A stretch of DNA of 39,420 nucleotides from Nitrospirota bacterium (GTDB lineage: Bacteria; Nitrospirota; Nitrospiria; JACQBW01): assembly GCA_016178585.1 (NCBI GenBank), contig JACOTA010000038.1, forward strand, positions 1 through 39,420, written 5' to 3'. Made by a program: the position numbers and the translations under genes. Under the pieces are notes generated by a model. The model worked only from the letters and a program-made list of their open reading frames with translations, ran no database searches and was not told where the DNA came from. Below are positions 1-2,536 of the stretch, piece after piece (position 1 is the stretch's first letter; each line of letters begins with the position of its first letter).

Positions 1-131
1 ACAGGTTGGCAACATCCAAATGGAGACCCTGGCATGCGATTGTCTCTTGCATAGGAGACAATATGCCATATATGGATTTGGAAGTCCAGCAAAAAATGAA
101 ACCTTACTTTAGGCGGGGGAGACCTGAGTAG
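1..131 (+). CDS. 3' end of an ORF entering from the left (partial)
   Basis: A frame is open from position 3 to a TAG at 129-131, about 42 codons, and has no start inside the window that is clearly real. Its C-terminal part contains the string DLEVQQK. The secreted protein at 968-1309 ends in DLEVQRKK, so this may be the tail of a third member of the same tandem family. The shared stretch is short, and 42 open codons can occur by chance, so the call is tentative. No terminator hairpin follows it. Confidence 0.3.
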   Translation, partial: RLATSKWRPWHAIVSCIGDNMPYMDLEVQQKMKPYFRRGRPE

Positions 132-176
132 TTACAAAAAAACTTTCAAGAGGATTAAAAATAAATGTCTTGTCAG

Positions 177-439
177 AATCACAAAGCCTTGTAACTTATT
201 GGTTTTATTTATTAAATCGTGTTTAACCCATTTTCAGTCTGTTTTTTCCACATTTTTTTTATTTTTTTTGAATCTGTCCCCCATCTGTCCCCTTTGACAT
301 GAAATAATTTTTTTTAATTAACCTTTAATTTTAGGAGGTGAAAACCATGAAAAAAATTTACTCATTTGTCTTGAAACCGATGCGGATCGCTCTTCTGTTT
401 GCCGCGATATCGGTTGCGATCGCCCTGCCTGCATTTGCC
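177..439 (+). repeat. Tandem duplication unit, copy 1 (leader DNA plus signal peptide)
   Basis: This stretch resembles 791-1060. Shared blocks include the TTGGTTTTA segment, the T-rich tract, two CTGTCCCC repeats 11 bp apart (274-281 and 285-292), the ATGAAATAAT block, AGGAGG and the coding region of the 31-residue signal peptide. Similarity stops at the signal-peptide cleavage point, so the mature proteins differ. This is seen directly by aligning the two stretches by eye. Confidence 0.75.
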
Positions 440-604
440 GTGCAAAAGGATCAGGCCGCTGCTCCCGCTTCTGCCAATCCCGGCACCTCTCCTTCTAATC
501 CCGTTGCCGGGAAAACCAAAGTACCTAAGCCACCAAAAGTACCCATAACTCCCAAGGATATTAAAGATATAATAGCACCTACTAAATGCCTCCCCAATTG
601 CTAA
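347..604 (+). CDS. Small secreted proline-rich protein, first tandem copy
   Basis: 85 aa, function unknown. I chose ATG 347 because AGGAGG at 333-338 lies 8 nt upstream; an in-frame GTG at 338 overlaps that ribosome binding site. Residues 1-31 form a clear signal peptide (MKKIY start, hydrophobic core, cut after LPAFA). The mature part of about 54 residues is rich in Pro, Lys and Ala, is probably disordered, and ends in a pair of cysteines (KCLPNC). Signal peptide and upstream DNA nearly match the gene at 968, whereas the mature parts do not align. A strong terminator follows at 655-691, so it is probably transcribed alone. I do not recognise a family. Secretion is well supported; everything else about its role is open. 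Confidence 0.68.
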   Translation: MKKIYSFVLKPMRIALLFAAISVAIALPAFAVQKDQAAAPASANPGTSPSNPVAGKTKVPKPPKVPITPKDIKDIIAPTKCLPNC

Positions 605-654
605 TGTAGTTACATCACGGGCACCAAGGTATAGTCACCGCTATGCAGATCATT

Positions 655-691
655 TACGGGAGGGAGTGCAACACATTGACTCCCTCCCGTA
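655..691 (+). terminator. Intrinsic terminator after the first secreted-protein gene
   Basis: A perfect 13-bp stem (655-667 pairing with 679-691, TACGGGAGGGAGT and its complement) with an 11-nt loop is followed by GAATTTTCATAATTTT. The stem is very stable but the T-run is interrupted. It lies 50 nt past the stop at 604. The rest of the 605-967 gap is the leader of the next gene. Confidence 0.7.
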
Positions 692-790
692 GAATTTTCA
701 TAATTTTATTATCACAACGAGGTTTTACCAAAACCAGAGAACTTCGTAAGTTCTTCTCTGCTCCCTTGACGACCTTCTCAATCACATCGA

Positions 791-1060
791 AATCAAAGCT
801 AGAAAGTTTATAACCCATTGGTTTTACTAATTAAATTTCATTTAACCCCTTTTTAGTCTATTTTTTTTAAAATTTTTCATTTTTTTTGAAATCTGTCCCC
901 CATCTGTCCCCCTTGGTATGAAATAATGTTTTTGTTAATAAATCTTAAATATTAGGAGGAAAAAACCATGAAGAACATTTACTTAGTTGTCGTGAAACCA
1001 ATGCGGATCGCTCTTGTGCTTGCCGCAATGTTGGTTGCGATCGCTTTACCTGCATTTGCC
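791..1060 (+). repeat. Tandem duplication unit, copy 2 (leader DNA plus signal peptide)
   Basis: Second copy of the unit at 177-439, with the same order of blocks: TTGGTTTTA, T-rich tract, CTGTCCCC at 893-900 and 904-911, ATGAAATAAT, AGGAGG and the signal-peptide codons. The segment just upstream of each AGGAGG is weakly promoter-like (TTGACA at 294-299 in copy 1, TTGGTA in copy 2), but no good -10 box can be assigned. The paired CTGTCCCC sites, one helical turn apart and kept in both copies, are the best candidate operator. Confidence 0.72.
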
Positions 1061-1309
1061 CAGAAAATGAAACTGCCGGACGGTACAATCGTTACTTGTG
1101 CGGGAGTTGGAAAAGACGGAAACGGGAACTACGTATGCCGGAATGGCGGCGACATTACAACTCTGCCGCCGGGAACCGTTCCCGCGAAACCCAGCGTAAA
1201 TAGCGGTACAAAGAATCCACCTCCCATAGATAAAAATCAACTCAAAAAACCGGTGAAAACCGGTGATGATGATGACATTAACGATCTCGAGGTTCAGCGC
1301 AAAAAGTAA
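968..1309 (+). CDS. Small secreted protein, second tandem copy
   Basis: 113 aa, function unknown. ATG 968 has AGGAGG at 954-959, 8 nt upstream. The signal peptide (residues 1-31, ending LPAFA) is close to that of the gene at 347, including the shared KPMRIAL and VAIALPAFA strings. The mature part differs. It has a short Gly/Asn-rich section with two cysteines (TCAGVGKDGNGNYVCRNGG), which could form a disulfide in the periplasm or outside. A Pro/Lys-rich linker and an acidic GDDDD tail ending DLEVQRKK follow. No recognised domain. The pair looks like a duplicated export cassette carrying different cargo. Confidence 0.68.
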   Translation: MKNIYLVVVKPMRIALVLAAMLVAIALPAFAQKMKLPDGTIVTCAGVGKDGNGNYVCRNGGDITTLPPGTVPAKPSVNSGTKNPPPIDKNQLKKPVKTGDDDDINDLEVQRKK

Positions 1310-1384: not shown

Positions 1385-2536
1385 TTAAGGTCTTGAATCG
1401 CTGGTCAGGGATTGGATTAAATTTCTTAAGTTAACGAATTTTATACTGATGTGATCGTATTGCCTTGAATAACCCTTCGTAACATCATTTGCGACAACAA
1501 AATTATTTCCTTCAGGATATTGTCTTCTAAAAGCCAAAAAATTGGTTGGGTCAAAATCTGAACCGCTCCACTTACATTCGATTCCTGTCGGAAGGTGGTG
1601 ATGATCAGTCAGAACAAAATCGACTTCATGACCTCTTTTGTCCCGCCAGTATAGAATTTTTCGAGTTTGTAAATGTGCCTGAATTTCATTTAAGACAAAA
1701 TGTTCCCAAAGAAACCCCATATCCTCACGGCGTAAATCATTCCAGCCCTTAAAGGTGCAGATAAAACCAGTATCAAACGCATACACTTTTGGGGCTGAGA
1801 TAATTTCAGCGGGGCGATGTGAACTAAAGGGCCGAATCACGTGGGCGACAAAGGTCGCCTCCAAAACAGCCAGATAATTAGAAATGGTTGTTCGACTCAC
1901 TTCACAGGGGCGCGCAAACCTGGTGGCCTCAAATATTCCTCCACTCTGGGCGATGACGAGCTCGGCAAATTTAATGAAGGAATGCCGTCGTTCGAGCCTG
2001 AAGAGTTCCTGAATGTCTTTGGCCCAGTAGGAATCCATCCATTCTTGAAAATCACGTTCAGGGATTGTTTTAGCCAGGAAAAAAGGGGGAAGCCCGCCAT
2101 ATAAAAAGCGGTGTTTTAAATCAGGTTGTGTAAAATCATGTAAATCTTCTAAAACAATCGGCGTTAACCAGATTTCTGTTTTACGTCCGGTCAGGGTATC
2201 CCGGAATTTTCTTGATGCCCCGAGTGTGGAGCTTCCGGTAGCCAGTATCTTTGTCTCCTTATAATGATCTGCCGCAATTTTAAGAAGCTCAGAAGGATTA
2301 TCGAGCCGATGAATTTCATCAAAAATAACCGTTTTACCTTTCAAGTCTTCGAGAAAAGATTGGGAATCTTCCATTTGACGACGTGTTCTCGGAAGTTCAC
2401 AATCAAAATACTCAATTTTGGGAAGGCTCTGGCATAATGAGGTTTTTCCAACCCGGCGGACACCTGAAAGCCATAGGACGGATTTGTGCTCCCATGCTTC
2501 CCTGATTTTTTTTATCCAGAACTGTCTTGTAACCAT
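1385..2536 (-). CDS. AAA-type ATPase with DUF4143-like C-terminus
   Basis: 383 aa, the usual size for the AAA_14/DUF4143 ATPase family. Visible motifs are Walker A GVRRVGKTS (25-33), Walker B VIFDEIH (70-76), a sensor-like LATGSS after it, and a C-terminal part resembling the DUF4143 nuclease-like fold (GHEVDFVL and IECKWS, i.e. a D...E-x-K arrangement). The family is common in bacteria and archaea and its biological role is poorly defined. Several members are discussed alongside toxin-antitoxin or mobile modules, which I cannot confirm here. The ribosome binding site before ATG 2536 is weak. It stands alone, convergent with the secreted-protein gene at 968. Confidence 0.85.
   Translation of the reverse strand: MVTRQFWIKKIREAWEHKSVLWLSGVRRVGKTSLCQSLPKIEYFDCELPRTRRQMEDSQSFLEDLKGKTVIFDEIHRLDNPSELLKIAADHYKETKILATGSSTLGASRKFRDTLTGRKTEIWLTPIVLEDLHDFTQPDLKHRFLYGGLPPFFLAKTIPERDFQEWMDSYWAKDIQELFRLERRHSFIKFAELVIAQSGGIFEATRFARPCEVSRTTISNYLAVLEATFVAHVIRPFSSHRPAEIISAPKVYAFDTGFICTFKGWNDLRREDMGFLWEHFVLNEIQAHLQTRKILYWRDKRGHEVDFVLTDHHHLPTGIECKWSGSDFDPTNFLAFRRQYPEGNNFVVANDVTKGYSRQYDHISIKFVNLRNLIQSLTSDSRP

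What the first reader, a model, noticed from the sequence alone, without database searches (positions are those of the whole stretch)
177..1309. Tandem secreted-protein cassettes: conserved leader and signal peptide, unrelated cargo
About 265 bp of upstream DNA plus signal-peptide codons is duplicated, while similarity ends at the cleavage site. The mature parts share nothing obvious: one is Pro/Lys-rich with a Cys pair at the end, the other Gly/Asn-rich with an acidic tail. A fixed export and expression module with swapped or fast-evolving cargo recalls bacteriocin, toxin or adhesin peptide arrays. The array may continue to the left of the window.
Basis: partly seen in the sequence, partly recalled or inferred. 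Interest (0 to 1): 0.65.

Follow-up and report, generated by a model that had tools for sequence, protein, structure and literature searches.

The report
Duplicated secreted-protein genes with shared promoter
Two neighbouring bacterial genes for small exported proteins are an old, strongly diverged duplicate pair; the DNA in front of them is a long, well-conserved promoter that also drives unrelated exported proteins elsewhere in this genome and in a related genus, so this looks like a small coordinated set of surface-protein genes rather than a toxin or bacteriocin array.

Summary
The duplication is real: 189-446 and 808-1067 are about 80% identical (promoter, ribosome-binding site, 31-codon signal peptide), and similarity collapses just after the predicted cleavage site. 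There is no array. The genome holds only these two signal-peptide copies, and an insertion-sequence end lies directly to the left (to about 135). The 'leader' is not tied to the signal peptide: a third copy (C27:889-998) precedes a 636-aa predicted outer-membrane protein, and a fourth, in another genus of the same family, precedes a 1616-aa Ig-like/beta-propeller secreted protein. All four share CTGTCCC-N4-CTGTCCC (11-bp period, as bound by OmpR/PhoB-type regulators), then exactly 7 variable bases, then TGA + wATnnT (extended -10). The leader is therefore most likely a ~120-bp activator-dependent promoter of a small regulon of lineage-specific secreted proteins. The two cargoes look unrelated, but a weak in-frame similarity suggests rapid divergence rather than cargo swapping. 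No homologue of either cargo was found, and no processing, export or immunity gene is in the window. The bacteriocin/toxin-array reading is not supported; 'fixed expression module, different cargo' is supported for the promoter only. The regulator and the cargo function are inferred or unknown.

The parts
1..135 (.). End of a multicopy element (insertion-sequence-like), at the contig edge; unique flank starts right after GTAGTTAC
   Evidence: Same 118-141 bp at eight other places, mostly contig ends; the seven read have a different flank after GTAGTTAC
186..308 (+). Promoter copy 1 (conserved ~120-bp leader)
   Evidence: 78% to copy 2, 71% to the C27 copy, 65% to the G001 copy; exactly three copies in the genome
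274..292 (+). Direct repeat CTGTCCCC-CAT-CTGTCCCC, 11-bp period: putative activator (OmpR/PhoB-type) site
   Evidence: 21-mer identical in all three genome copies, one mismatch in G001; 0.01 matches expected by chance in the window
300..308 (+). Putative extended -10, TGA-AATAAT, 7 nt after the direct repeat
   Evidence: Same register in all four copies
347..604 (+). Secreted protein 1, 85 aa: signal peptide 347-439, Pro/Lys-rich mature part ending CLPNC
   Evidence: ORF, SD AGGAGGTG 333-340; AlphaFold2 single-sequence model low confidence outside the signal helix; no Pfam/NCBIfam family
653..693 (+). Strong hairpin, putative terminator between the two units
   Evidence: 13-bp perfect stem; fold z = -8.0
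805..927 (+). Promoter copy 2
   Evidence: 81% to the C27 copy, 76% to the G001 copy
893..911 (+). Direct repeat of promoter copy 2
919..927 (+). Putative extended -10 of promoter copy 2, TGA-AATAAT
968..1309 (+). Secreted protein 2, 113 aa: signal peptide 968-1060, small Cys-pair beta region (residues 32-65), acidic tail
   Evidence: ORF, SD AGGAGGA 954-960; AlphaFold2 pLDDT 82-88 for residues 31-70 only; no Pfam/NCBIfam family above cut-off; no PDB fold match with E <= 0.001

Best explanation
Two tandem, separately transcribed genes for small exported proteins arose by an old duplication of a whole unit (promoter, RBS, signal peptide, mature part). Promoter and signal peptide stayed similar under constraint; the mature parts diverged almost beyond recognition by substitution and insertion/deletion. 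The shared leader is an activator-dependent sigma-70-type promoter: a tandem-dimer response regulator of OmpR/PhoB type would bind CTGTCCC-N4-CTGTCCC where the -35 would lie and recruit polymerase to an extended -10, with a ~75-bp AT-rich conserved tract upstream as a second contact region. The same promoter drives other, unrelated, lineage-specific secreted/outer-membrane proteins, so the pair belongs to a small surface-protein regulon. Shown: the repeat, its copy number, its association with secreted-protein genes, the invariant register of repeat and -10-like element. Inferred: promoter activity, the regulator class, Sec export, cell-surface location, homology of the mature parts.
For: Exactly three full leader copies in the genome and one in G001 of the same family; none in the other class members searched. 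All four precede genes whose products begin with a signal-peptide-like N-terminus; C27 leads a 636-aa barrel-like protein followed by lipoprotein/fn3/PKD genes, G001 a 1616-aa Big_3_5/beta-propeller protein. Leader similarity without the CTGTCCCC part is still 5-13 sd above shuffles. Invariant 7-nt spacing to TGAwATnnT while the 7 nt vary. The C27 copy lacks 10 bp, about one helical turn, within the AT tract. The leader is not a structured RNA (z = +1.8; no Rfam match). A 7+4+7 direct repeat is the recorded site architecture of PhoB/PhoP-type regulators (PMC4415409, PMC4832192). Residual in-frame similarity of the mature parts; none of 361 other coding windows aligned with cargo 1 reaches that score (max 14), while 1.1% of those aligned with cargo 2 do.
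Against: Only four promoter copies, so motif boundaries are uncertain. The -10 matches are 4-5 of 6. No regulator was identified, and the pstS-porin region lacks the box. Residual cargo similarity is weak and both proteins are Pro/Lys-rich. Signal peptides were judged by eye (no SignalP). The hairpin between the units lacks a clean T run.
Confidence: 0.66

Rival explanations
1. Cassette with swapped cargo: promoter plus signal peptide recombined in front of unrelated mature sequences (bacteriocin-, toxin- or adhesin-like diversification).
For: Sharp loss of similarity at the signal-peptide cleavage site; the promoter alone occurs in front of quite different secreted genes.
Against: Only two signal-peptide copies in the genome, none in relatives; weak in-frame residual similarity of the mature parts; no processing, export or immunity gene nearby.
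Confidence: 0.18
2. The ~120-bp leader is itself a mobile or repeated DNA element (MITE-like or IS-borne promoter) that landed before several genes.
For: Sharp 5' boundary near AGTTTATAACC in the copies; the C27 protein has no homologue in G001; an IS end lies ~50 bp from copy 1.
Against: No terminal inverted repeats seen; always the same orientation, upstream of secreted-protein genes; copies 65-81% identical, far from recently transposed; only three copies.
Confidence: 0.1
3. Leader is a 5' UTR regulatory RNA (riboswitch or attenuator) rather than a promoter.
For: Conserved sequence lies directly upstream of the start codons.
Against: Folds worse than shuffles (z +1.8), no Rfam match, conserved block ends about 20-105 nt before the RBS depending on the gene, extended -10-like element at its 3' end.
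Confidence: 0.05

Closest known systems
OmpR/PhoB-type response-regulator promoters (Pho box: two 7-nt direct repeats, 4-nt spacer)
   Same: CTGTCCC-N4-CTGTCCC has the same 7+4+7 architecture and shares CTGTC with the E. coli CTGTCAT repeat; it lies where the -35 would be
   Different: CCC instead of CAT-type ending; additional ~75-bp conserved AT-rich tract; the pstS-porin region of this genome lacks the box, so it is probably not the phosphate regulon
Tandem paralogous small secreted proteins with conserved signal peptide and fast-evolving mature part
   Same: High conservation of leader and signal peptide, near-total divergence of the mature part, separate promoters and a hairpin between
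   Different: Only two copies; orphan in all genomes searched, so rates cannot be measured
Double-glycine/Sec-exported bacteriocin clusters
   Same: Small exported peptides, Cys pairs
   Different: No peptidase-transporter, immunity or modification gene in the window; promoter shared with large surface proteins

Membership tests
OmpR/PhoB-type regulated promoter | Two 7-nt direct repeats with 4-nt spacer (11-bp period) | tested here: met
   CTGTCCCCCATCTGTCCC identical in three copies, one substitution in the spacer of the fourth
OmpR/PhoB-type regulated promoter | Repeat placed over the -35 region at a fixed distance from a -10 element | tested here: met
   7 nt between CTGTCCCC and TGA+wATnnT in all four; sequence only, activity itself not testable
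OmpR/PhoB-type regulated promoter | Bound by a cognate phosphorylated response regulator | not testable with these tools
   No regulator linked to the loci was identified
Pho regulon proper | Box also upstream of the pst phosphate-uptake genes | tested here: not met
   No repeat with at least 11 of 14 matches in the pstS locus L106, which includes 306 bp 5' of the upstream porin-like gene
Bacteriocin/toxin peptide array | Dedicated processing/export or immunity gene | tested here: not met
   Pfam scans of the main window genes: metabolism, chemotaxis, DNA repair, stress; DNA left of the IS end not available
Bacteriocin/toxin peptide array | More than two cassettes sharing the leader peptide | tested here: not met
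   Two signal-peptide copies in a 96%-complete genome
Tandem paralogues | Homology across the mature parts | tested here: inconclusive
   P about 0.001-0.005 (DNA codon shuffle), about 0.012-0.017 (protein)

The most novel reading that the evidence does not exclude
A ~120-bp promoter that is better conserved across genera than any of the genes it drives: a fixed regulatory module that repeatedly captures newly arisen, lineage-specific secreted proteins (promoter first, gene later).
Probability: 0.15. Interest if true: 0.6.

Novelty: new member of a known kind. Interest (0 to 1): 0.3.

Why it matters
It defines a compact, testable promoter motif for a small surface-protein regulon in a poorly known bacterial family, and gives two orphan secreted proteins a likely regulatory context. 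If the promoter really outlives its genes, it would be a natural case for studying how orphan secreted genes gain expression.

Tried and rejected
(1) A longer array: own-genome DNA and protein searches found only two signal-peptide copies. (2) Riboswitch/structured leader: rejected. (3) Pho regulon proper: no box at the pstS locus. (4) Cargo identification: no significant Pfam or NCBIfam match; for protein 2 no PDB sequence match, no significant fold match and no plasmid match; protein hits in relatives with E 0.002-1 were inspected for protein 2 and judged compositional. (5) The motif outside the family: 2-mismatch hits in the class, one hit in a Ruminococcus contig and four in viral contigs lack the full leader; three of the class hits (G053, G196, G041) share conserved flanks across species. 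(6) A literature search for TCTGTCCCC returned nothing relevant among the 15 papers listed of 196. (8) The direct-repeat pattern CTGTC-N6-CTGTC reads the same backwards, so the tool's reversed control is uninformative.

Full report
OBSERVATION. The duplicated leader plus signal peptide is real. Ungapped blocks 189-314/808-933 (80%) and 308-446/929-1067 (83%) give sliding identities of 78-90% up to ~445; beyond ~460 identity is at background. The leader alignment is 19.5 sd above dinucleotide shuffles. The ORFs are 347-604 (85 aa) and 968-1309 (113 aa), each with a strong Shine-Dalgarno and an N-terminus ending in ALPAFA; signal peptides were judged from sequence, not by a dedicated predictor.

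COPY NUMBER AND LEFT EDGE. The window is the whole of contig C38 of a 2.45-Mb, 96%-complete assembly. Its first ~135 bp are the end of a multicopy element found at eight other places, mostly contig ends; the seven that were read each have their own flank after GTAGTTAC. The array therefore does not continue directly to the left; what lies beyond the element is unknown. The signal peptide occurs only twice in the genome.

THE LEADER IS A SEPARATE MODULE. A third leader copy (76%) lies at C27:889-998, without the signal peptide, about 40 bp before a 636-aa protein with an N-terminal signal sequence and a barrel-like C-terminus ending in F (judged by eye), followed by a lipoprotein-like gene, a secreted gene with a weak fn3 match and an fn3/PKD lipoprotein-like gene. 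The 21-mer ATCTGTCCCCCATCTGTCCCC occurs exactly three times in the genome even with 3 mismatches allowed. In 270 genomes of the class, only one other genome has a match that lies in a full leader: G001, of another genus in the same family, where it precedes a 1616-aa secreted protein with Big_3_5 Ig-like and beta-propeller domains. The part upstream of the CTGTCCCC repeat aligns 5-13 sd above shuffles in every pair tested. A sequence model of the four leaders finds no further copy in the genome or in 39 relatives. Hits elsewhere in the class, in one Ruminococcus contig and in four viral contigs are the short motif without the full leader.

ANATOMY OF THE LEADER. In all four copies: a GTTTATAACC-like start, an AT-rich tract with a TTTAGTCTATTTTT-like stretch, then CTGTCCC-N4-CTGTCCC (11-bp period), then exactly 7 non-conserved bases, then TGA followed by AATAAT, AATAAT, TATCTT or TATTCT. 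TG-N-TATAAT-like hexamers are extended -10 elements (general knowledge). The C27 copy lacks 10 bp, about one helical turn, within the AT tract. The RNA folds worse than shuffles and no Rfam family matches. This is what an activator-dependent promoter looks like. A 7+4+7 direct repeat is the recorded site type of PhoB and PhoP (OmpR/PhoB family) regulators (PMC4415409, PMC4832192). The pstS-porin region lacks the box, so a regulator other than the phosphate regulator is likely. That a response regulator binds here is inference.

THE CARGO. No significant family match was found for either protein. Protein 2 has no plasmid match, no PDB sequence match and no significant fold match. Weak hits in relatives look compositional for protein 2 and are of similar strength for protein 1. 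AlphaFold2 without an alignment gives low confidence for protein 1 outside the signal helix and a small, moderately confident beta region with a Cys pair for residues 32-65 of protein 2. The mature parts are not clearly unrelated: the best local DNA alignment is in frame, covers 60 nt and scores 17.5, against 10.7 for codon-shuffled pairs (P 0.001-0.005), with protein P 0.012-0.017. None of 361 other coding windows aligned with cargo 1 reaches that score; 1.1% of those aligned with cargo 2 do. This favours, without proving, a common origin with insertion of the Cys-pair region in protein 2 or its loss in protein 1.

INTERPRETATION. The best reading is an old tandem duplication whose mature parts diverged fast, inside a small regulon of lineage-specific secreted proteins driven by one conserved promoter. 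A strong hairpin (653-693) lies between the two units, consistent with each being transcribed from its own promoter copy. The leader of unit 2 is as close to the C27 leader (81%) as to that of unit 1 (78%) and nearly as close to the G001 leader (76%), so the promoter similarity is better explained by constraint than by recent duplication. The window's other genes are chemotaxis, pentose-phosphate, DNA-repair and stress genes.

LIMITS. Three genomes of the family are available, so regulon size and promoter conservation rest on four copies. The regulator, promoter activity and protein location are untested. The claim that the downstream genes are lineage-specific rests on searches of 20 to 57 relatives.

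Noticed in passing
window 1-135: End of a multicopy IS-like element present at many contig breaks; its flanks are often A/T-rich.
   Followed up: partly
window 1385-2536 (-): AAA_14/DUF4143 ATPase convergent with the second secreted gene.
   Followed up: partly
L041 158-720: Two short overlapping genes upstream of the third leader copy, the arrangement of a DUF433/DUF5615-type toxin-antitoxin pair (by eye, not searched).
   Followed up: no
L053 (C27, 6-20 kb): Long cobalamin-biosynthesis cluster (by eye) downstream of the third leader's surface-protein operon.
   Followed up: no
L045 4740-5000: A Ruminococcus contig with many scattered TCTGTCCCC / GGGGACA repeats, apparently unrelated to this promoter.
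   Followed up: no
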